57,661 nt of DNA from Chryseobacterium gleum (GTDB lineage Bacteria > Bacteroidota > Bacteroidia > Flavobacteriales_F > PHOS-HE28): assembly GCA_945872795.1 (NCBI GenBank), contig CAMCAZ010000018.1, forward strand, positions 1-57,661, read 5' to 3'. The notes under the pieces are model-generated. The model was not told where the DNA came from, ran no database searches, and was given only the letters and a program-made list of their open reading frames with translations. Positions 2-55,687 of this stretch are shown here, piece after piece. The position numbers and the translations under genes are program-made. Within the stretch, counting starts at the first letter, position 1. Each line of letters starts with the position of its first letter.

Positions 2-331
2 ATGCCGCTGCCGACGCGCGCCACGCGCACCTTCTACACCAGCAGCGCCACGCAGACCAAGATCCGCCTGCAGGTGGTGCAATACCACGACCCCAAGGGG
101 GAACTGACGCCAGTGGGCGAACTGGTGATCGGACCCATTGCCAACCCCACGCTGAACTACCCGGTGGAGGTGACCGTGGAGAACACCGCCGACGGCACCA
201 TCCGTGTGGAAGCCTACGACCCCAATACCGGTGTGGAGCTGGAGCAGGAGTTCGGTGCCTCAGGCAATGGTGGTTCCAGCCTGGTGCTCCAGCGGAACCT
301 GGTGAGGAGCACGTTCATCAATCATTTGTGA
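2..331 (+). CDS. Hsp70-family protein, C-terminal fragment (5' end outside window)
   Basis: Only the last part of the gene is visible; the reading frame is open to the window edge, so the first ATG is probably internal. The visible residues fit the beta-sandwich substrate-binding domain of Hsp70/DnaK: a PLPTRATRTFYT segment like the LPARKTxxFxT strand of DnaK, then a GELVIGPI strand and a VEVTVENTADGTIRVEAYD segment like the conserved VxxxxDANGIxxVxAxD stretch. Only about 35 residues follow, so the long helical lid of true DnaK is missing; this suggests an Hsp70-like paralogue rather than dnaK. It ends with TGA. The Hsp70 assignment is by motif resemblance only. Confidence 0.6.
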   Translation: MPLPTRATRTFYTSSATQTKIRLQVVQYHDPKGELTPVGELVIGPIANPTLNYPVEVTVENTADGTIRVEAYDPNTGVELEQEFGASGNGGSSLVLQRNLVRSTFINHL

Positions 332-412: not shown

Positions 413-991
413 TTAATTGAGAACGAAATGTATTTTATAATATATTTCATCTAAATTTTCATCAGATTCAGAAAGTATTAAGATAAAATTATCGGTTCTA
501 TAATCTTCATTTGAAACAATCCTCTTTCCTTGTTTCAAATCACAATAAGGAGAGCATTCATTTGTTCTTAATGTTGAAAATAATTTGTTCCATTTTTGGA
601 CAGATTCAGTATCACATTTCTTGCAACACATCACTCTATAATAATAACGATTAGATTCATCATTATTGCTAAGGTTAATAGTGGATGGAAAGAAAGGAGC
701 ATAAGCATATACGCTCAGTCGCAATACCACATCAGGGCTTAGTATGGTTTTATCGTTATAATCATATCTTTTCCAATTCGAAAAGTCAGTCTGTCTGTTG
801 TTTGCCACTGTTAGAACCCCATCGGCATCCACTACCACCATGATGGAGCTGTTGTACGTGAACTGCTTGGGGCCCGAGGCCACCGGTACTGCCGAAGGCT
901 TAAACTTATGCGCCGGTTTCGGCGCGTTGGGATTAATCTGGGCGATGGCGTTGGACGTAATAAAAGCTTTGAGGACCAATGAGTTAAGCAT
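413..991 (-). CDS. Secreted protein: shared N-terminal module with an AT-rich Cys-containing tail
   Basis: Start chosen at ATG 989-991 because TACTTTCG lies four bases upstream, as in the neighbouring paralogue, and because translation from there gives a clean signal peptide (MLNSLVLKAFITSNAIA, then QINPN). The first 55 or so residues (signal, Pro/Lys-rich linker, NSSIMVVVDADGVL) match the genes at 1051-2058 and 2272-3609, also at DNA level. After that the homology stops and base composition drops to roughly 20-30% G+C, far below the surroundings. The tail, about 135 residues, has paired cysteines (MCCKKC, ECSPYC) and matches nothing I recognise. It looks like a module swap that joined foreign DNA to a resident secreted N-terminus. 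Function unknown. Confidence 0.7.
   Translation of the reverse strand: MLNSLVLKAFITSNAIAQINPNAPKPAHKFKPSAVPVASGPKQFTYNSSIMVVVDADGVLTVANNRQTDFSNWKRYDYNDKTILSPDVVLRLSVYAYAPFFPSTINLSNNDESNRYYYRVMCCKKCDTESVQKWNKLFSTLRTNECSPYCDLKQGKRIVSNEDYRTDNFILILSESDENLDEIYYKIHFVLN
817..945 (-). repeat. Copy 1 of shared 5' module (short)
   Basis: DNA repeat shared with 1730-2010 and 3240-3520, covering the linker and the start of the PEGA-like module. Homology breaks off near 817, exactly where the AT-rich tail of this gene begins. Confidence 0.75.
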
Positions 992-995
992 GCAG

Positions 996-1003
996 CGAAA
1001 GTA
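996..1003 (-). promoter_or_regulatory. -7 promoter box TACTTTCG
   Basis: TAnnTTTG-type Bacteroidota -7 element four bases before the ATG of the gene ending at 413; the expected transcription start is at or next to the start codon. Confidence 0.55.
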
Positions 1004-1050
1004 GTGGGTCGGGATCTTCAAAAAGTTTCACGGCGCTCCTATCAGCGGAC

Positions 1051-2058
1051 CTATCTGATGGTGAGCTCGTCAATGTCAATGGACAGGTACTCCGTACCTG
1101 ACCAAACACACAAGCCGAAATACGGCCCAGCTAGACTCTCGCCACTTGTCGTACCGATCAATTGGTCGTTGATGTAGAGCTTGAACAGGGGACCCGTTTT
1201 GATGACCGATATCTTGTTCTCCGCATTACCCGTGCGCACCTCCCTGTATATCTCACCACCGATCAGATCCGCTGAAGTATCCCCGGATTTCCTTGCGAAA
1301 ACGGCATTTCCTTGCCCGGTTATACCTGCAAAGAGCCACCTCTTGGATGAATCAGGATCGAATCCCATCATCATACCGAAATAGTACCTGTCCGTGCCTG
1401 CCACTTTACGGATCGTGGCACTTATCTCACAGTCCATGCTCCGATCGAACAAAACCGGTATGGTAGAATACCACATACCTCCCTTTTTAGAAGTAATGGA
1501 ATACTTGCCTCCTTCAATCTTCATGCTAAAGCCATCTGTTTCCTTCGCCAACCAATTATTGGCGTTACGATCAAAATCTTCCTTGAATATCATTTGTTCC
1601 ACTTCTGCTCTGCGGTCCTCTTCCGCTCGGCGCTGCTTCTCCGCCTCCACCTCCGCTCGCTGTCTAGCCTCTTCCTCCGGCTGCCGTTGGATACGCGCCT
1701 GCCGCACACCGGCAAGCGCGGTCTTCACTATCAACTGCTGACCGCTCTTGCATTCCACCGTCTGTTCCCATCGGTCCTCGCCCATGCGCAGCTCCACGGC
1801 ATGGCTCCCGGCCATGATGGGGCTCTTCCAGGTCTCACCCTCGCGGAATTTACCGATCTTCTCGTAGTCCACCGAAAGCACCCCATCGGCATCCACCACC
1901 ACCAGAATGGAGCTGTTGCCCGTGAACTGCATGGGAGCCGAGGCCACAGGTGCTGCCGCAGGCTTGGGCTTGGGCTGCGGTTTGGGCACGTTAGGGTTGA
2001 CCTGGGCTGCGGCGCTGGCACAGACCAACATCACCCACGCGAGAAGGAAATGACGCAT
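1051..2058 (-). CDS. Secreted protein: PEGA-like module, coiled coil, LamG/DUF1080-like domain
   Basis: 335 residues. Signal peptide (MRHFLLAWVMLVCASAAA), Pro/Lys linker (residues about 20-45), then a module at about 46-120 (SSILVVVDADGVLSVDY ... GSHAVELRMGEDRWEQTV) that resembles PEGA-type surface domains. A Glu/Arg-rich coiled coil follows (about 125-160). The C-terminal 175 residues (FKEDFDRNANNWLAK ... SIDIDELTIR) have the beta-rich look of the concanavalin/LamG or DUF1080 family, which binds or cleaves sugars; I see no catalytic residues to choose between these. Start supported by TATCTTTG four bases upstream. Probably periplasmic or outer surface. The module differs from the one at 2272-3609 at about ten of 75 positions, so the duplication is fairly recent. 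Confidence 0.75.
   Translation of the reverse strand: MRHFLLAWVMLVCASAAAQVNPNVPKPQPKPKPAAAPVASAPMQFTGNSSILVVVDADGVLSVDYEKIGKFREGETWKSPIMAGSHAVELRMGEDRWEQTVECKSGQQLIVKTALAGVRQARIQRQPEEEARQRAEVEAEKQRRAEEDRRAEVEQMIFKEDFDRNANNWLAKETDGFSMKIEGGKYSITSKKGGMWYSTIPVLFDRSMDCEISATIRKVAGTDRYYFGMMMGFDPDSSKRWLFAGITGQGNAVFARKSGDTSADLIGGEIYREVRTGNAENKISVIKTGPLFKLYINDQLIGTTSGESLAGPYFGLCVWSGTEYLSIDIDELTIR
1730..2010 (-). repeat. Copy 2 of shared 5' module
   Basis: Encodes the linker and PEGA-like module; very similar at DNA level to 3240-3520 and, over its 5' half, to 817-945. Confidence 0.75.
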
Positions 2059-2062
2059 GCGG

Positions 2063-2070
2063 CAAAGATA
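2063..2070 (-). promoter_or_regulatory. -7 promoter box TATCTTTG
   Basis: Exact TAnnTTTG four bases before the ATG at 2058; implies a leaderless or nearly leaderless mRNA. Confidence 0.65.
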
Positions 2071-2271
2071 GCGGGCAGGGCCTAGCGCGCGCGGAACGAA
2101 GCCGGCCGCATGAGCGGCGGTTGACCGCGCAGCCTGGCCAAGAAAGTTGCAGGAGGGAGCACCTTAGGCCCCTTTCGAAAAAGACCAAGAGCATGTGGAG
2201 TAGAAATCAACTCCTCGAATGCTTCGCTCTCTGCGGAGCGCCGCTGCGCTTATGCTCGGGCCTGCCAAGGA

Positions 2272-3609
2272 TCACTCGGTCCTGGCAAGCCGGAAGCCCG
2301 TATTGCAGAATCTTGAATAGGGCGCGAACCAAAAGATGCGGAGGGCCACCCAGCAAGGAATCTCGCCCCAAGAGCCGCCACGTACAACACGGCTTTCCCC
2401 GCTGGATGGACCTTGCGGATCGCGCTGCGGACTACTGCTGTAATAGCTCTTCCCGTACCAGTCCTGGCACAATTCCGACACGTTGCCACTCATGTCGTAC
2501 AAGCCCAGTTCATTGGCCCGAAAACTACCCACCGGCGCGCTGTACACAAAGCCGTCGTCATACCCCTCGAGGATGGGCAAACCTGTAAGGCGCCGCTTCG
2601 CCGAAAGGTCCGCCACGTTGCCCGATGGGCTCCCGAGGCCCCATCCATACCTGCCTCCCTGGCTCTGCTGGCCGCCCCGCGCCGCATACTCCCACTCCGC
2701 CTCCGTGGGCAGGCGGTAAGCCTGGCCGCTCATCTGGCCTGCCCACCGGGCAAAGGCCACCGCATCATCCCAACTTACATGCACCACCGGGTGACGGTCC
2801 CCTTCCGTGCCCCAGCGACGCCCCTCAGCATCACAGCGCCAATCCACCCCGGTGCGCACTTCATATTTCTCTCCTGTCCAGACGAAGCTGCCGCCATCCC
2901 GCTCCGCAGTGGTCACATGCCCGGAGGCCGCCACGAACTGTCGGAATTCCCCAACTGTCACCTCGTACTTGCTGACCCAGAACGTGCTCACCTCCACCCA
3001 GTGAGCGGGCTTCCCATCTTCACCGCATTCGCTCCCCTGTTCGCTGGTGCAGCCCATCATGTAGCCGCCGCCTTCGATGCGCACCATGTACGCATCGAAG
3101 GGGTCGCGCCTGCGGCGCTCGACCGCCTCTTCCGCCGCTTGGAGCTCCGTACCGGTAAGGGTATTCGGCTCCGCCACTGTATCGCCCAGTGCGCTGCTCT
3201 GGCGGGCGGCCCGCACCTTGGCCAACTCCGTCTTCTCGATCAGCTGCTGCCCGCTCATGCACTCCACCGTATGCTCCCACCGATCCGCCCCCATGCGCAA
3301 CTCCACCACGTGGCTCCCGGCCATGATGGGGCTCTTCCAGGTCTCACCAGCACGGAAGTTCCCGATCTTCTCGTAGTCCACCGAAAGCACCCCATCGGCA
3401 TCCACCACCACCAAGATGGAGCTGTTGCCCGTGAACTGCTTGGGGCCCGAGGCCGCCGGTGCTGCCGCAGGCCGGGGCTTGGGCGCCGGCTTGGGCACGT
3501 TGGGGTTGATCTGGGCGGTAGCCGGGATAGCCAAGCTGAAGAAAAGAACGATGCCGATGGAACTTGCCATTCCCCATGCAGGGGCGAACATCCTCAACGG
3601 CCGCCACAT
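2272..3609 (-). CDS. Secreted protein: PEGA-like module and FGE-sulfatase (SUMF1-like) domain
   Basis: 445 residues from the chosen start at 3609; the frame is open to 3783, but the upstream part overlaps the previous gene and the ATG at 3609 (or 3591) gives a normal signal peptide ending ATAQ. The shared linker and PEGA-like module follow, then a formylglycine-generating-enzyme-type fold of about 270 residues: MVRIEGGGYMMGC, HWVEVSTFWVSKYEVTVGEFRQF, HPVVHVSWDDAVAFARWAG, YRLPTEAEWEYAARGG, GLYDMSGNVSELCQDWY, VVRGGSW and a final GFRLAR. Most bacterial secreted proteins with this fold are not true FGE enzymes, so sulfatase activation is not implied. The start codon is uncertain; no clear -7 box is seen. 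Confidence 0.8.
   Translation of the reverse strand: MWRPLRMFAPAWGMASSIGIVLFFSLAIPATAQINPNVPKPAPKPRPAAAPAASGPKQFTGNSSILVVVDADGVLSVDYEKIGNFRAGETWKSPIMAGSHVVELRMGADRWEHTVECMSGQQLIEKTELAKVRAARQSSALGDTVAEPNTLTGTELQAAEEAVERRRRDPFDAYMVRIEGGGYMMGCTSEQGSECGEDGKPAHWVEVSTFWVSKYEVTVGEFRQFVAASGHVTTAERDGGSFVWTGEKYEVRTGVDWRCDAEGRRWGTEGDRHPVVHVSWDDAVAFARWAGQMSGQAYRLPTEAEWEYAARGGQQSQGGRYGWGLGSPSGNVADLSAKRRLTGLPILEGYDDGFVYSAPVGSFRANELGLYDMSGNVSELCQDWYGKSYYSSSPQRDPQGPSSGESRVVRGGSWGEIPCWVALRIFWFAPYSRFCNTGFRLARTE
3240..3520 (-). repeat. Copy 3 of shared 5' module
   Basis: Encodes the linker and PEGA-like module of the FGE-domain protein; long DNA similarity to 1730-2010. Confidence 0.75.
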
Positions 3610-3739
3610 GCCCGGACATCGACCTCGCGCCATCGCCATATCGAATCGGTCTGTGTCTTGAACGATGGTCGTTCCTATGTGCAAGTTCATGATCCACCCT
3701 TTCTCCATCCTGTGATCCCGATGAGGCTCCAATGTTCCT

Positions 3740-5119
3740 TCAACCCGCATGATGTGGATCAGAATGCCAGGGCAATGCACCACCGGAATAACTCAGATCC
3801 ACCTCATTCGTAACGATATTGCTCGTGGTGCTCCCCGATGAGAAGAAGTTGACAAAAATGCTATACTTTTCCTCGAATTCCGAGGAATCTTGTATCATCC
3901 TGCAAGGCATTTCATAGCCTACGGCAAGCGCTCTGATCCGCATGTGGATGCCCCAAGCACTTCCCCACCTGAACTCATCCTCGCTTCGCATCCCATTCCA
4001 ACGAAGATCATAGTCCTGACCAACATGGCTGCTTTCCGCAATGGAGCAGTCACCACCCTTGATCAAGTAGCCATCGAAGCGCAACGAGGTGGAGATGAAA
4101 TGCCTGAACCGATCACTGAGCCGATATGTCAAAGCTGAACGGATCCCAATTGAAACTATCCCTATATTGTTGTGCTCGCATGTATCGAGCGCAAAATACG
4201 GGAGGCCATATTTGTCAGTTATACTCGAAACAAGTCCCCCCCAATCATATTTGGCAAAGGCTACCCGTGTGCTCCAATTAAGATCGAACCTGAGGAACGC
4301 CCCCCCCGCGATCGGGGCGATGTAATCCAGGCCGAAAGACCGCATTTCTCCAAGCCCTATCCTGCCATTCGTGTATGGTATTCCGAAAGAGAGTGAACTT
4401 ATCCGTTGGGAAGAACTCATCAGCCTCCCTGTCAAATCACTCGAAGAGATTCCCTGCCCGTGCCGCAGCATGCCATAGTCATCGCCGGCCAATGTGCGCA
4501 TGCGGTCCAACTCCTGTTCACGCTCACGTTGCCCTGCCTCCTCCTTTGCCCTTTTTTCAGCTTCAGCCTGTTGCCTTGCCCGCTCCGCATCAGCCCGCTT
4601 CTGCCTTTCCGCGTCCTCGATCCGTTTTTGCTCCGCCATACGTTGCTCCTCGATCGCCTGCGCCGCCGACAGGGAGTCAGCCCTTGTTTGTGCCTCTGCA
4701 CGACTTCGTCCTTTTTGAAACTTGCGGGCTCTATATGCGTTCAGCTCAGCGCGCGGTATCAGCTCGAACTGCAAGCCCGCAACCAGGACCCATAGAAAGA
4801 TGTGCAATTCCTCCCGCTCCTCCACCTCTAGAAAGGCAGATGCCTAATATGCAGACTGGCCGGTGACCAGCTCCAATGGATGGATGCCGGATTCCACCAT
4901 CAACTGGCCGGGTTCCAGATCAAACTGGTCGTCATCCACCTTGACCTTAGCGAGTCCCTGACCCTCCCACTCGAACCCAACCGCCGTCCTGGTCTTGGGC
5001 GCGGGGGCAGGCTTCGGCGTTGCCTTTTTCGGGAGCGGGGCCGCTTGCTGCTTGGGATTCACCTGGGCGAAGGAGACCAACAAGGATGCGAGCATAGCTA
5101 CCAACAGGAGCAGGCGCAT
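3740..5119 (-). pseudogene. Modular secreted protein (PEGA-like module, coiled coil, barrel) split by an in-frame TAG
   Basis: Two open stretches, 4844-5119 (91 codons) and 3740-4825, lie in the same frame and are separated only by a TAG at 4844-4846. Read through, they give one protein of about 458 residues: signal peptide (MRLLLLVAMLASLLVSFA), Lys/Pro linker, a divergent PEGA-like module, a Glu/Arg/Ala coiled coil, and a C-terminal beta-rich domain of about 230 residues like small outer-membrane barrels. The module spans the stop: GIHPLELVTG lies before it, and a segment matching the paralogues' SGQQLIVKTALA lies after it. This argues for one original gene. Possible explanations are a young pseudogene, a sequencing error or stop readthrough. 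A GTG at 4825 could restart translation, but without a signal peptide. Confidence 0.7.
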
Positions 5120-5315
5120 GGATTCATTTGTTTCCGGTAAAGAAATGAAGTTGGGCGATCCAAACCAACATCAACAAGAGCCGCCCGAGCATCATGGTGC
5201 CTGGCCGAAGGGGAACGCCTTGCCACCCTCTAAGCTGCACGGAGCGCCAAGCGCTGAACGAGCTTATCAACAGGTGCCGGGAGACCCCTGTGCCCCGGCT
5301 TCCTCTGCAGGCTGC

Positions 5316-5541
5316 ATGAACTATCTTGACGGCTTCAATCCCGCCCAGCGCGCAGCGGCCGAGCACACCGACGGGCCTACGATGGTCATTGCCGGCGCTG
5401 GCAGTGGCAAGACCAAGGTGCTCACCGTACGCATCGCGCACCTCATGGCCGCCAAGGGGGTGGCCCCCTAACGCATCCTGGCCCTCACCTTCACCAACAA
5501 GGCGGCCAAGGAAATGAAGGAGCGCATCGCGGGCATCGCGC
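5316..5541 (+). pseudogene. UvrD/PcrA helicase N-terminal remnant
   Basis: Translates to MNYLDGFNPAQRAA then the Walker A motif AGAGSGKT and TVRIAHLMAAK, clearly a copy of the first 75 codons of the intact helicase at 8867-11269. Codon 52 is TAA where the intact gene has TTC; the same frame then continues with RILALTFTNKAAKEMKERIA before homology ends near 5530. DNA identity looks like roughly four in five bases by eye. No promoter box precedes it. It is a truncated, stop-containing duplicate. Confidence 0.8.
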
Positions 5542-5817
5542 GGCGACTGCGGCGGCTTCATCGTCTACCTCCTGGAACGGCTGGATGAGGCCCTGGCCGA
5601 AGTGCTGGACGCGCCCGACCCCGTGCGCAAGCCGCAGGACCGCCTCCACCTCTTCCTGCAGCAATGGGGCGAGCGTCCCTTCCGCCGCAAGGACTACCTC
5701 ACCTTCTTCACCGAACTGAGCACCGCCACCCGCGACCTGATGGAGGCCAGCGCTGATGGACGGGTGATAAAAAGCGGGGAGGTACGGACGGCGGTGTATA
5801 GGGCGGGTGAACGGTAA
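5542..5817 (+). pseudogene. Fic-family protein C-terminal remnant (winged helix)
   Basis: Starts directly at the end of the helicase remnant, in another frame. The 91 codons end with TAA and read GDCGGFIVYLLERLDEAL, a pattern seen after the Fic core, then RPFRRKDYLTFF, STATRDLMEASADG and TAVY, the usual winged-helix tail of many Fic proteins (RKDYLxLF, STATASRDL, TxY). The catalytic Fic core (HPFxxGNGR) is absent, so only the tail survives. A GTG at 5602 could start a 71-residue peptide, but nothing suggests that this is expressed. The Fic assignment rests on motifs. Confidence 0.6.
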
Positions 5818-5938: not shown

Positions 5939-7051
5939 CTATCCTCCCGCAGACCAGTGTCCGAAGAACACATCGGTGATCCGGTATCCCTCCGGACCGT
6001 GATGCACCACTTCCTTTTCCAACAGCACGCCGAGACTTTGGCGAACGGTGCTCAGCGCTGACAGTTCGTGGCGGATAACGAACTCCATGGACGTGGGGGT
6101 TTCCACCACACCCTCTTTCGCGATGGCCGTGAGCAAGGCCGCTTGATTGGGGCTGAGCAGGCGCTGCAGGGTCATGTACTCAGGTGCGCGCTCCTTCAGG
6201 ATGCTGGCCTGAGTGCGGAGCAGGTCGGCATGCTCCACCACCTTGCCCAGGGAGAACAAGCGGTTGAAGAGGTACTGTACATAGTAGGTATGCGTGCGGC
6301 ACCAAGCCAGGCCCTCGGCGATGACGGCTGGATCGATGCGTTTGCGTGCAGCCTTGAAGTGTTGCTGGATGAAGGTGGCGTAGGCTTCATCAGGAATGGG
6401 CCCCAAGTACAGCGGCTCGGTGGCTTGAAAGAAGGGGCGCTTGCCGTCGGCGAAAATGGCCTGCATCATTCGGCGGTCACTACCGGAGAAGATGAATTGC
6501 ACGTTGCGCAACTTCTGTACCTGTTCACGCAACAAGGCCTCGATATTGCGCTCGGGATATTGCACGATCTGCTGGAACTCGTCCAAGGCGATGACCACTG
6601 GCTTCCGCTGCTTCTCCAGGTAAGTGAAGAGTTCATCCAGGGCCATGGCCTCCTTAAGACCGGCCCGCGCGGAAACACCCAGCTCCGGGAGCCCGGTGAG
6701 CGGGTCGAAGTTGAGGCTGAACTCCAGCGAACGCATGACCTGGGCCACCTCCTTCAGCATGGCACTGGTGGGCTTTCCCACCTGTTTCAGGGCCTCCTGC
6801 ACGATGCGCAGCACCATGCCAGCCTGGTCCGTGGTGCGGTAGAGGTCCACGAATACCGGGATGAACTTGCGCTGGCTCGCAAAGAAGTGCCGGATAAGGG
6901 CCGTCTTGCCCAAGCGCCGGAGTGAGATGATGGTGACATTGCGCTGGTTGGCCATGGCCTCGCGCAGGAAGGCCAGCTCCTCCACCCGGTCGCAGAAGGT
7001 GTCCGCCCCGGCATAGCCTTGCAATAGAAAGGGGTTGAACTCCTCGGACAT
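5939..7051 (-). CDS. AAA ATPase (ATPase_2 / STAND-like) with C-terminal winged helix
   Basis: 370 residues from ATG 7051; an in-frame ATG at 7066 lies inside the operator and upstream of the -7 box, so 7051 is preferred. N-terminal P-loop region (NVTIISLRRLGKTALIRHF, with Ser in place of the first Gly of GxxxxGKT, as in many members of this family), Walker B at VVIALDEFQQ, a sensor-like FIFSGSDRRMM, then helical and winged-helix segments near the C-terminus (LSPNQAALLTAIAKEG, STVRQSLGVLLEKEVV). The family (archaeal-type ATPase, PF01637-like) is often stand-alone and poorly understood. The operator at its promoter suggests autoregulation or control by an unlinked repressor. Convergent with the Fic remnant. 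Confidence 0.8.
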   Translation of the reverse strand: MSEEFNPFLLQGYAGADTFCDRVEELAFLREAMANQRNVTIISLRRLGKTALIRHFFASQRKFIPVFVDLYRTTDQAGMVLRIVQEALKQVGKPTSAMLKEVAQVMRSLEFSLNFDPLTGLPELGVSARAGLKEAMALDELFTYLEKQRKPVVIALDEFQQIVQYPERNIEALLREQVQKLRNVQFIFSGSDRRMMQAIFADGKRPFFQATEPLYLGPIPDEAYATFIQQHFKAARKRIDPAVIAEGLAWCRTHTYYVQYLFNRLFSLGKVVEHADLLRTQASILKERAPEYMTLQRLLSPNQAALLTAIAKEGVVETPTSMEFVIRHELSALSTVRQSLGVLLEKEVVHHGPEGYRITDVFFGHWSAGG

Positions 7052-7055
7052 GAGG

Positions 7056-7063
7056 CAAACGTA
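7056..7063 (-). promoter_or_regulatory. -7 promoter box TACGTTTG
   Basis: Lies four bases before the ATG at 7051 and directly abuts the first operator repeat, which would sit in the -10 to -45 zone. Confidence 0.6.
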
Positions 7064-7102
7064 CATAATTTATGACACATAATTTATGACACATAATTTA
7101 TG
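7064..7102 (-). promoter_or_regulatory. Triple operator: three CATAATTTATG repeats, 14-bp period
   Basis: Three identical 11-bp units at 7064-7074, 7078-7088 and 7092-7102, joined by ACA. Each is a hyphenated palindrome (CATAA-T-TTATG). The array is flanked by GTA and TAC, so the whole block is close to symmetrical. It touches the -7 box of the ATPase gene and lies between two divergent genes. The layout fits cooperative binding of a dimeric repressor. Confidence 0.65.
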
Positions 7103-8856: not shown

Positions 8857-8866
8857 TACCCTTCCC

Positions 8867-11269
8867 ATGAATTATCTGCAAGGCCTGAACCCCGCACAAC
8901 GTGCGGCAGTGGAGCATACCGATGGCCCCACGATGGTGATCGCCGGGGCGGGTAGCGGCAAGACCAAGGTGCTTACCGTGCGCATTGCGCACCTGATGGC
9001 CAGCAAGCAGGTGGACCCCTTCCGGATCCTGGCCCTGACCTTCACCAACAAGGCGGCCAAGGAGATGAAGGCGCGCATCGCCACGATGGTGGGCCGCAGC
9101 GAGGCCGCCAACCTGTGGATGGGCACCTTCCACAGCGTGTTCAGCCGCATCCTGCGCTCGGAGGCCGACAAGCTGGGCTACCCCAAGGACTTCACGATCT
9201 ACGATTCCGACGACAGCCGCAGCGTGATCAAGGGCATCGTGAAGGAGTGGCAGCTGGACGACAAGCTGTACAAGCCCAACCAGGTGCACGGCCGCATCAG
9301 CATCGCGAAGAACAACCTCATCGGTCCGCTGGAATACCTGGCCAATGTGGAACTGATGGCGGGCGACGCCAGCGTGGGCCGTGAGCGCATCGGCGATCTG
9401 TACAAGGCCTATGCGGAGAAGTGTTTCCGCGCGGGAGCCATGGACTTCGATGACCTGCTGTACAATACCGCCCTGCTCTTCCGAGACCACCCGGAGGCCA
9501 TGCTGAAATACCAACAGCGCTTCCAGTACCTGCTGGTGGACGAGTACCAGGACACGAACGCCGTGCAGTACAGCATCGTGAAGACCCTGGCGGCGCGGCA
9601 TGAGAACATCACCGTGGTGGGCGATGACAGCCAGAGCATCTACGCCTTCCGCGGGGCCAACATCCAGAACATCCTCAACTTCCGCAGCGACTACCCGGAC
9701 CACAAGCTCTTCAAACTGGAGCAGAACTACCGCAGCACCAAGGTGATCGTGGGGGCCGCCAATTCGCTGATCGAGAAGAACAAGGACCAGATCAAGAAGA
9801 CCATCTGGACGGACAACGTGGAGGGCGAGCGCATCCGCGTGCACCGCGCCCTGAGCGACAACGAGGAAGGCGCCTTCGTGGCCCACAGCATCTTCGAGAC
9901 CAAGATGCAGGAGCAGGTGCCCAACAAGGGTTTCGCCATCCTGTACCGCACCAACGCGCAAAGCCGCAGCATGGAGGAGGCCCTGCGCAAATTGAACGTG
10001 CCCTACCGCATCTACGGCGGCATGAGCTTCTACCAGCGCAAGGAGATCAAGGACCTGATCAGCTACTTCCGCCTGGTGTGCAACCCGCGCGATGAGGAGG
10101 CCTTCAAGCGCGTGATCAACTACCCCACCCGCGGCATCGGGCAGACCACCGTGGACAAGCTGATGGTGGCCGCAGCGGAAAAGCAGATGTCCATCTGGGA
10201 CATGCTGCTGGAGCACCTCGGCGACCTGGGCTTCCACAGCGGCACCCGCAAGGCCATCGCCGACTTCGTGCTGATGATCCAAGGCTTCCAGACCATGCTG
10301 CCCACGCACGCCGCCGCCATCCTGGGCGAGGAGGTGGCACGCCGCACGGGGATCCTGAAGGACCTGTTCTCCGACAAGACGCCCGAGGGCGTGAGCCGCT
10401 ACGAGAACATCCAGGAACTGCTGGCGGGCATGAAGGAGTTCAGCGAGCGTGATGCCGAGGGCAGCGACGTGCCGAAGACGCTGAGCGACTTCCTGATCGA
10501 TGTGGCCCTGCTGACCGATGCCGACAACGACGACCCGAACGACAACGACCGGGTGAGCCTGATGACCATCCACAGCGCCAAGGGGCTGGAGTTCCCACAC
10601 GTGCACGTGGTGGGCCTGGAGGAGGACCTCTTCCCCAACCTGATGGCCGTGCAGAGCCGTGCCGACCTAGAGGAGGAGCGCCGCCTGTTCTATGTGGCGC
10701 TGACGCGCGCCGAGAAGCGCTGCACACTGAGCTACGCCATGAGCCGCTACAAGTGGGGCAACCTCACCAGCAGTGAACCGAGCCGCTTCATCGAGGAGAT
10801 CGATGCGAAATACCTGGAGCTGCCCCGCCAGAGCGAACGTGCGGCCTTCGGAGGTTTTACGCCCGACCGTGGTACGCCCCCCTGGGCGCGTCAACCCCGC
10901 GTGGTGGACCGGCCGGCCGATGAACGCAGCAGCTCGAAACCGGTGTACGGTCGCGAGAAACGCGCACCAGCACCTGAAGGGCGACGACCCGCCGGAGCCC
11001 CGGCACCACCGCCCGCCCCGGCACCGGACCAGCGCAACCTGAAGCGCATCACCAGCACCGGAACGCCCGTTCAGGCCACCGCGTCGCTGGGCGGCCCCGT
11101 GCCCGACCTGTCCGAAGGCATCACCGTGGAGCACGAACGCTTCGGCAAGGGCAAGGTGCTGAAGATCGAAGGCCTGCCACCCGACCTGAAGGCCACCATA
11201 TTCTTCCCCAGCGCCGGCCAGAAACAGCTGCTGCTGAGGTTCGCGAAGCTGACGGTGGTGGAGGGATGA
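8867..11269 (+). CDS. uvrD: ATP-dependent 3'-5' DNA helicase, UvrD/PcrA type
   Basis: 800 residues, superfamily 1. Walker A at residues 26-33 (AGAGSGKT), motif Ia LTFTNKAAKEMK, Q-like NPAQRAAV, motif II LLVDEYQDTN, motif III VVGDDSQSIYAFRGAN, motif IV-V QNYRST, TIHSAKGLEF and motif VI YVALTRAEKR are all present. A variable Pro/Ala/Arg-rich linker (about 645-725) precedes a small PcrA C-terminal domain (ITVEHERFGKGKVLKIEG) that in PcrA contacts RNA polymerase. Acts in nucleotide excision and mismatch repair and in clearing replication blocks. It is the source of the truncated copy at 5316. uvrD and pcrA cannot be told apart here. Confidence 0.95.
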   Translation: MNYLQGLNPAQRAAVEHTDGPTMVIAGAGSGKTKVLTVRIAHLMASKQVDPFRILALTFTNKAAKEMKARIATMVGRSEAANLWMGTFHSVFSRILRSEADKLGYPKDFTIYDSDDSRSVIKGIVKEWQLDDKLYKPNQVHGRISIAKNNLIGPLEYLANVELMAGDASVGRERIGDLYKAYAEKCFRAGAMDFDDLLYNTALLFRDHPEAMLKYQQRFQYLLVDEYQDTNAVQYSIVKTLAARHENITVVGDDSQSIYAFRGANIQNILNFRSDYPDHKLFKLEQNYRSTKVIVGAANSLIEKNKDQIKKTIWTDNVEGERIRVHRALSDNEEGAFVAHSIFETKMQEQVPNKGFAILYRTNAQSRSMEEALRKLNVPYRIYGGMSFYQRKEIKDLISYFRLVCNPRDEEAFKRVINYPTRGIGQTTVDKLMVAAAEKQMSIWDMLLEHLGDLGFHSGTRKAIADFVLMIQGFQTMLPTHAAAILGEEVARRTGILKDLFSDKTPEGVSRYENIQELLAGMKEFSERDAEGSDVPKTLSDFLIDVALLTDADNDDPNDNDRVSLMTIHSAKGLEFPHVHVVGLEEDLFPNLMAVQSRADLEEERRLFYVALTRAEKRCTLSYAMSRYKWGNLTSSEPSRFIEEIDAKYLELPRQSERAAFGGFTPDRGTPPWARQPRVVDRPADERSSSKPVYGREKRAPAPEGRRPAGAPAPPPAPAPDQRNLKRITSTGTPVQATASLGGPVPDLSEGITVEHERFGKGKVLKIEGLPPDLKATIFFPSAGQKQLLLRFAKLTVVEG

Positions 11270-17061: not shown

Positions 17062-17093
17062 AACGGGGCCCCTGCCATGGCAGGGGCCCCGTT
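17062..17093. terminator. 32-bp perfect palindrome, terminator
   Basis: Perfect 16-bp arms (AACGGGGCCCCTGCCA and its complement) right after the protease stop codon, followed by GCTTTTG. Confidence 0.7.
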
Positions 17094-41457: not shown

Positions 41458-41577
41458 ACACCATTCTTCAAGCTACATCCAGTTCAGACCGGGATGCATT
41501 TTCGACCCCGGCTCAAGACCGGGTGATCCAAAAATTAAGGCCTGCCGAGGGACCTTCTCGAAAGCAGAGCGCATCAT

Positions 41578-41617
41578 CCACGAAAAAGGCCCGCCGATCG
41601 GCGGGCCTTTTTCGTGG
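41578..41617. terminator. 40-bp perfect palindrome, bidirectional terminator
   Basis: Perfect 20-bp arms centred between 41597 and 41598, with A-run and T-run flanks, so it can end transcripts from both convergent genes. Confidence 0.8.
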
Positions 41618-41630
41618 AATGTTCTTGTGA

Positions 41631-54386: not shown

Positions 54387-55181
54387 ATGCGCCAGTACCA
54401 CGACCTCCTCCGCCGCATCCTTGATGAAGGGGTGCAGAAGACCGACCGCACCGGCACCGGCACCATCAGCTGTTTCGGCCACCAGATGCGCTTCGACCTG
54501 GCGGAAGGTTTCCCGATGGTGACCACCAAGAAGCTGCACCTGAAGAGCATCGTGCATGAGCTGCTGTGGTTCCTGGCCGGCGACACCAACGTGAAGTACC
54601 TGCAGGACAACGGTGTGCGGATCTGGGACGAGTGGGCCGATGAACACGGCGATCTGGGCCCCGTGTACGGCTACCAGTGGCGCAGCTGGCACACGCCCGA
54701 TGGCCGGGTGATCGACCAGATCGCGAACGTGGTGGAGATGATCCGGAAAAGTCCGGACAGCCGCCGCATGATCGTCACCGCCTGGAACCCCGCCGATGTG
54801 GACCGCATGGCCCTGCCGCCCTGCCACGCCCTGTTCCAGTTCTACGTGGCCGATGGCAAGCTGAGCTGCCAACTCTACCAGCGCAGTGCGGATACCTTCC
54901 TGGGCGTGCCCTTCAACATCGCGAGCTACGCGCTGCTGACCCTGATGATGGCGCAGGTCTGCGGCCTGAAACCCGGCGAGTTCGTGCACACCTTCGGCGA
55001 TGTGCACCTGTACACCGACCACCTGGAGCAGGCCAAACTGCAGCTCTCCCGCGAGTGCCGCCCGCTGCCCAAAATGGAACTGGACCCCGGCGTGACGGAC
55101 CTCTTCGCCTTCCGCTTCGAGCACTTCACGCTGAAGGACTACGACCCGCACCCGCACATCAAAGCCTCGGTCTCGGTATGA
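54387..55181 (+). CDS. thyA: Thymidylate synthase
   Basis: 264 residues, the same size as E. coli ThyA. Seen: [66 protein letters not shown], the catalytic Cys in [32 protein letters not shown]. Makes dTMP from dUMP, turning methylene-tetrahydrofolate into dihydrofolate. The stop overlaps folA as ATGA. Confidence 0.97.
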
Positions 55182-55687
55182 TCGTCTCGGCCATCGCCGC
55201 CGTGGCGGACAACGGCACCATCGGCCACGACGGTGACCTGCCCTGGCACCTGCCGGACGACATGAAGTACTTCATGCGCACCACCCGCGGACATTACGTG
55301 ATCACGGGCCGGAAGAACTACGAGAGCATCCCCGAGAAGTACCGCCCCCTGAAGGACCGCGTGAACATCGTGGTGACGCGCAACACGGAACATGCGGCAC
55401 CCGGTGCCGTGGTGCTGGGTTCGCTGGAGGACGCCCTGGACCGCGCGCGGCAGGGCGGTGAGACGGAGGTCTTCATCATCGGTGGCGGGCAGATCTACCG
55501 CGAGGCCCTGGCCAAGGGCCTGGTGGACCGCCTGTACCTGACGCTGGTGCACGCCGACATCGTGGGCGATACCCACTTCCCGGTGGTCGACCCCGCCGAC
55601 TGGCAGGAGCTGAGCCGCGAGGCCCACCCTGCGGATGCGCGCCATGCCCACGCCTTCAGTTTCGTGGTGCTCGAGCGTCGCCCTTGA
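55178..55687 (+). CDS. folA: Dihydrofolate reductase
   Basis: 169 residues starting at the ATG that overlaps the thyA stop. Motifs: [73 protein letters not shown]. Reduces the dihydrofolate made by ThyA; the two genes form the common thyA-folA pair with coupled translation. Confidence 0.96.

What the first reader, a model, noticed from the sequence alone, without database searches (positions are those of the whole stretch)
413..5119. Cluster of four modular secreted paralogues with a shared N-terminus and unrelated C-termini
Four tandem same-strand genes share a signal peptide, a Pro/Lys linker and a PEGA-like module, but end in four different domains: an AT-rich Cys tail, a LamG/DUF1080-like domain, an FGE-sulfatase fold, and a coiled coil plus barrel. 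Three of the modules are close even at DNA level (817-945, 1730-2010, 3240-3520). This looks like a locus where one exported adaptor is repeatedly joined to new effector or binding domains. The layout resembles polymorphic-toxin or surface-antigen loci, but without T9SS tails or known toxin domains. I know of no described system with this build.
Basis: partly seen in the sequence, partly recalled or inferred. Interest (0 to 1): 0.75.

Follow-up and report, generated by a model that had tools for sequence, protein, structure and literature searches.

The report
Patchwork secreted genes in an insertion hotspot
A bacterium carries a cluster of exported-protein genes that share one front end spliced onto different, partly foreign back ends, inside a stretch of chromosome where its relatives carry little or unrelated DNA; the process resembles one known from pathogen effectors, seen here in ordinary exported proteins of an unnamed bacterium that appears to belong to the Bacteroidota.

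Summary
Genes at 413-991, 1051-2058 and 2272-3690 (minus strand) share a front module at 79-86% DNA identity and end in unrelated tails. The fourth (3740-5119) is a distant relative, broken by an in-frame TAG. A fifth close member with a sulfatase-modifying-factor (FGE) tail lies on another contig. Both contigs end inside one Hsp70 gene, so all five sit in one island of over 14 kb between a Fic gene and a helicase. Those two genes are 0.07-0.16 kb apart in four congeners and flank other genes in eight.

The module has its own history. In the two FGE paralogues, synonymous sites differ at 11/42 fourfold positions in the module and 37/46 in the FGE domain (p=4e-7). Four of five genes drop in third-position GC from front to tail by 0.12-0.43; host genes drop at most 0.07. 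The set is absent from 44 congeners. The usual partner of this front end is the FGE domain; the LamG-like tail occurs elsewhere without it.

Best reading: terminal reassortment of a Sec-exported, FGE-type front end onto new tails in an integration hotspot, with much decay. No immunity genes, toxin domains or reverse transcriptase were found. This is a new variant of a known kind.

The parts
413..991 (-). g1: signal peptide, Pro/Lys linker, first half of the module, then an orphan 130-residue AT-rich tail (30% GC, Cys-containing)
   Evidence: in 20000 shuffles of the tail none was free of stops
805..954 (-). module copy in g1, truncated mid-domain (79-84% DNA identity to the other copies)
1051..2058 (-). 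g2: signal peptide, linker, module, charged coil, LamG/CBM66-like jelly roll (residues 154-335)
1702..2007 (-). module copy in g2
   Evidence: 86% identical to the g3 copy
2272..3690 (-). g3: signal peptide, linker, module, FGE-sulfatase domain without the catalytic Cys pair
3211..3516 (-). module copy in g3
3740..5119 (-). g4: distant relative (signal peptide, Pro/Lys linker, similar small beta domain, coiled coil, putative barrel), broken by an in-frame TAG at 4844-4846
   Evidence: one TAG inside an otherwise open 476-codon frame
2..331 (+). 3' end of an Hsp70 gene whose 5' part ends contig C1; joins the two halves of the island
   Evidence: HSP70 E 4e-70 for the C1 part; identity of this 3' part is by inspection and position
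5203..5286 (+). second copy of the Fic 3' end and Fic-helicase spacer (81% to the copy on C1); right edge of the island
5315..5530 (+). decayed second copy of the helicase 5' end (82% to 8866-9081)
5538..5751 (+). decayed second copy of the Fic 3' part (95% to C1)
5939..7066 (-). AAA ATPase found at the same hotspot in three of 13 congeners examined
8867..11269 (+). intact UvrD/PcrA-type helicase, conserved right border of the hotspot

Best explanation
A secreted FGE-domain protein of this lineage (signal peptide, Pro/Lys linker, small beta-sandwich module, charged coil, FGE domain) was duplicated in an insertion hotspot between a Fic gene and a helicase. Recombination then joined its front end to other tails, several with foreign base composition. 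This is terminal reassortment: the front end supplies start signals, Sec export and spacing, and the tail supplies binding. Shown: the shared front, the separate history of module and tail, the tails of different composition, the hotspot and the strain specificity. Inferred: the direction (front end native, tails acquired) and the function. The most likely function is periplasmic or surface ligand binding: a sugar-binding-like jelly roll in g2, a C-type-lectin-like FGE fold without catalytic cysteines in g3 and the C1 copy, and an unknown tail in g1. Several products are already decaying, so part of the cluster may have no function.
For: Module DNA 79-86% identical in four genes at two contig ends. 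For g3 against the C1 copy, fourfold sites at identical residues differ at 11/42 in the module and 37/46 in the FGE domain (Fisher p 4e-7); dS is 0.57 in the module and saturated (pS 0.83) in the FGE domain. Third-position GC drops from front to tail by 0.43 (g1), 0.32 (C1 copy), 0.17 (g2) and 0.12 (g4); among 21 control genes the largest drop is 0.07, and g3 (0.07) looks native. In 44 congeners no module, no g2 tail and no g4. The same kind of N-terminus in G009, G012 and G153 carries an FGE domain each time. Fic and helicase are 0.07-0.16 kb apart in four congeners (G009, G037, G038, G042), while eight others hold 1-10.5 kb of different genes there. Gene fragments at 5203-5751 and on C1 show repeated illegitimate joins.
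Against: No donor of any tail was found, so foreign origin rests on composition. The g1 tail is an orphan. Gene conversion among older fusions would also lower synonymous divergence in the module. One control ORF showed an opposite-sign GC shift (54677-55684, -0.37), probably a wrong start. No other strain of the species was available, so rearrangement between strains was not seen.
Confidence: 0.6

Rival explanations
1. Concerted evolution: the fusions are old, and gene conversion between neighbouring copies keeps only the module similar.
For: Module copies lie in one island, and low synonymous divergence is confined to the module.
Against: It does not explain the un-ameliorated composition of the g1, g2 and C1 tails or the absence of any of these fusions in 44 congeners. 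Module copies still differ by dS 0.46-0.78, so conversion is not recent.
Confidence: 0.2
2. Recombination debris: the hotspot collects gene pieces by illegitimate joining, and the chimeras are chance products without function.
For: TAG in g4, a decayed sixth relative and an FGE fragment on C1, and truncated Fic and helicase copies. The g1 join lies inside the module rather than at a domain border.
Against: g1, g2, g3 and the C1 copy keep open frames. The 130-codon AT-rich tail of g1 is stop-free where 0 of 20000 shuffles are. Module dN is about a fifth of dS.
Confidence: 0.3
3. Polymorphic toxin or antigen locus with swapped C-terminal effector domains.
For: Constant front, variable tails.
Against: Gaps between genes are 49-213 bp with no small immunity gene. 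No PADLOC match to g1-g4, no toxin family in Pfam, and the recognised tails look like binding folds.
Confidence: 0.05
4. Diversity-generating retroelement targets, since the FGE fold is a known DGR target.
For: FGE fold similar to Treponema variable protein 1 (2y3c, E 1.5e-14).
Against: No reverse transcriptase in the genome (PF00078), and differences are not confined to a C-terminal variable region.
Confidence: 0.01
5. Assembly artefact: a metagenome-like contig made chimeric across related strains.
For: The assembly has 102 contigs and contig breaks fall in this island. The second Fic/helicase piece is only 82% identical to the genome's own helicase.
Against: Module copies occur on two contigs, which meet inside one Hsp70 gene at the conserved Fic-helicase locus. 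Completeness 100, contamination 0.07.
Confidence: 0.07

Closest known systems
Terminal reassortment of type III effectors (Stavrinides et al. 2006, cited in PMC6460904 and defined in PMC7555288)
   Same: A shared 5' part of genes, carrying the export signal, is joined to unrelated 3' parts, giving chimeras in variable regions.
   Different: The front end here is a Sec signal peptide plus a folded module, not a type III signal. No host-cell target is implied, and the normal partner is an FGE domain.
Secreted FGE-sulfatase (PF03781) proteins with an N-terminal beta domain, as in congeners G009 and G012 and in G153
   Same: Same order: signal peptide, Pro/Lys linker (with the (V/I)NPN start in the congeners), small beta domain, coil, FGE domain (g3 and the C1 copy).
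   Different: g1 and g2 keep the front but lack the FGE domain.
Polymorphic toxin systems (PMC3482391)
   Same: Constant trafficking front and variable C-terminus produced by recombination.
   Different: No immunity genes, no recognised toxin domain, small proteins.
CBM66 / LamG-like jelly rolls
   Same: Fold of the g2 tail (Z 18.2, 155 residues, rmsd 2.5).
   Different: 16% identity; ligand residues not examined.
Insertion hotspots flanked by conserved core genes
   Same: Fic-helicase interval holds 0.07 to over 18 kb of variable genes in the genus.
   Different: No integrase recognised in this genome's island; borders carry duplicated pieces of both core genes.

Membership tests
Terminal reassortment chimeras | 5' part of several genes similar at DNA level, 3' parts unrelated | tested here: met
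Terminal reassortment chimeras | 5' and 3' parts have different histories | tested here: met
   fourfold sites p 4e-7; GC3 drop in four of five genes
Terminal reassortment chimeras | identified donor gene for the 3' part | tested here: inconclusive
   homologues of the g2 tail found but no close donor; none for g1 or g4
FGE-sulfatase domain family (PF03781) | score above the Pfam gathering cut-off | tested here: met
   g3 201 bits; C1 copy 156 bits
Active formylglycine-generating enzyme | catalytic Cys pair in the GGS(Y/F)LC...YC region | tested here: not met
   g3 and the C1 copy lack it; the genome's FGE on C24 has GGSFLCHDTYC; motif from established FGE knowledge
PEGA domain (PF08308) | Pfam PEGA match | tested here: not met
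   no PEGA match for g1-g4 at E up to 1 nor for ten module sequences at E up to 10; DUF2846 weak
Polymorphic toxin system | immunity gene directly downstream of each toxin gene | tested here: not met
   gaps of 49-213 bp between g4, g3, g2 and g1 hold no gene
Polymorphic toxin system | C-terminal toxin domain | tested here: inconclusive
   none recognised, but the g1 tail is an orphan
Diversity-generating retroelement | reverse transcriptase in the genome | tested here: not met
T9SS cargo | C-terminal sorting domain | tested here: inconclusive
   no T9SS sorting model matched g1-g4 in NCBIfam at E up to 0.1; no dedicated test was run

The most novel reading that the evidence does not exclude
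The island is an active generator of exported binding proteins: a resident FGE-type front end is repeatedly fused to incoming foreign tails at this hotspot, and different strains carry different sets, together with an Hsp70 and a J-like protein that serve the products.
Probability: 0.1. Interest if true: 0.75.

Novelty: new variant of a known kind. Interest (0 to 1): 0.45.

Why it matters
Terminal reassortment is known mainly from type III effectors of pathogens. Finding it, with a synonymous-site test, in Sec-exported FGE-domain proteins of a bacterium that appears to be an ordinary member of the Bacteroidota suggests it is a more general way to make new exported proteins. The Fic-helicase hotspot gives a fixed address where it can be followed across strains.

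Tried and rejected
DGR targets: no reverse transcriptase. Polymorphic toxins: no immunity genes or toxin domains. Sharp exchange at the signal peptide: the peptides keep weak similarity in most pairs, so they may simply have diverged. The g4 stop replacing a conserved Trp: the alignment does not fix which codon it replaces, so this is not claimed. Donors of tails on plasmids: no match. Module fold: AlphaFold2 pLDDT 85, a seven-stranded sandwich; best solved match only TM 0.53/0.71 at E 3.5e-4 (a chain of an RtkS-PpkA complex), not used as evidence of function. Hits of the g2 fold to neurotoxin binding domains reflect the common jelly roll and were set aside. A call with a mis-framed reference failed, and the original 2006 paper is not held.

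Full report
What is there. The window is contig C18 of an assembly of 3.32 Mb in 102 contigs. Its left end carries minus-strand genes: g1 413-991, g2 1051-2058, g3 2272-3690 and a broken g4 3740-5119. g4 is a single reading frame interrupted by one TAG at 4844-4846; the frame is otherwise open for 476 codons. g1-g3 share a DNA module of up to 306 bp, 79-86% identical, starting at the predicted signal-peptidase site AQ|(V/I)NPN. g1 holds only its first 140-150 bp. g4 matches only loosely at protein level.

More members. The genome holds a fifth copy with the module and an FGE domain, on contig C1 (85% DNA identity to the g3 module). Nearby on C1 lie an FGE C-terminal fragment and a decayed reading frame with the same AQVNPN start.

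One island. Contig C1 ends inside an Hsp70 gene (Pfam HSP70 E 4e-70), and the window begins with what reads as the Hsp70 3' end. In relatives, the genes near the end of C1, a Fic gene last, lie next to the helicase that in the window starts at 8867. The spacing between Fic and helicase is 0.07-0.16 kb in four congeners (G009, G037, G038, G042) and 1-10.5 kb in eight others, filled with other genes (ABC transporter, glycosyl hydrolase, transposase, kelch-like and T9SS-type proteins by inspection). In a thirteenth (G018) Fic was not found near the helicase. So g1-g4 and the C1 copy lie in one variable island of more than 14 kb at a hotspot. Its right edge carries a second copy of the Fic end and spacer (5203-5286, 81%), then a helicase fragment (5315-5530, 82%), then a Fic fragment (5538-5751, 95%), then an AAA ATPase also found at this hotspot in three congeners.

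Separate histories of front and tail. g3 and the C1 copy have the same domain order, so the same two genes can be compared in two places. In the module, 11 of 42 fourfold sites at identical residues differ; in the FGE domain, 37 of 46 (Fisher p 4e-7). Module dS is 0.57, while the FGE domain is saturated with pS 0.83. Protein-level selection alone is not expected to produce this at synonymous sites. Base composition agrees: third-position GC falls from front to tail by 0.43 in g1, 0.32 in the C1 copy, 0.17 in g2 and 0.12 in g4, against at most 0.07 in 21 control genes of the window; g3, at 0.07, looks native. One control ORF shifts the other way by 0.37, probably because its start is placed too far upstream. 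The g1 tail (30% GC) is open for 130 codons, where none of 20000 shuffles is.

Distribution. The module profile finds no match in the other 44 genomes of the genus and, among 395 genomes of the class, one full-length relative (G153, about a third identical), also attached to an FGE domain. Two congeners have a related N-terminus with the same (V/I)NPN start and Pro/Lys linker, again with an FGE domain. More remote matches of the beta domain sit before ankyrin repeats, named by inspection. The g2 tail has relatives in three other genomes of the class, in proteins with caspase-like or OmpA-like parts (named by inspection) and without the module. The g1 tail has no convincing relative in 395 genomes.

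Folds. The g2 tail folds as a jelly roll (pLDDT 93), closest to CBM66 (Z 18.2, rmsd 2.5 over 155 residues, 16% identity). The module folds as a small beta sandwich (pLDDT 85) without a strong solved match. Pfam does not call it PEGA; DUF2846 is the nearest, weak. The FGE domains of g3 and the C1 copy lack the catalytic cysteine pair, unlike the FGE protein on C24, so they are better read as binding folds than as enzymes. That last step is inference.

Interpretation. The most economical account is that the front half of a resident exported FGE protein was copied and joined to other tails inside a hotspot that gains and loses DNA by recombination. This is the pattern called terminal reassortment for type III effectors (Stavrinides et al. 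2006, cited in PMC6460904; [quoted passage not shown] The role of the products is inferred: exported ligand-binding proteins. Broken members show that many products do not last, and a fully non-functional origin for g1 remains possible.

Limits. No second strain of the species, no reads and no donor for the tails were available. Gene conversion among older fusions cannot be fully excluded.

Noticed in passing
window 5203-5751: A second, decayed copy of the Fic 3' end, spacer and helicase 5' end (81-82%), followed by a 95% copy of a Fic 3' fragment: a scar of recombination between diverged copies of one locus.
   Followed up: partly
L045:14718-15911 and window 2-331: An Hsp70 gene split between contigs C1 and C18, preceded on C1 by a J-like protein (L045:12134-13045) and a 559-residue protein without family match; this operon sits between the paralogues.
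   Followed up: partly
L045:8244-10250: 668-residue protein built largely of tandem coil repeats (SKFMDQAEQHEQ type), in the same island.
   Followed up: no
window 5939-7066: AAA ATPase with weak matches to candidate defence families PDC-S27 and PDC-S01, present at the same hotspot in three congeners.
   Followed up: partly
window 54677-55684: ORF whose first 120 codons have third-position GC 0.41 against 0.78 in the rest; probably a start placed too far upstream.
   Followed up: no
window 41577-41618 and 17062-17093: Perfect palindromes of 42 and 32 bp, possibly terminators.
   Followed up: no
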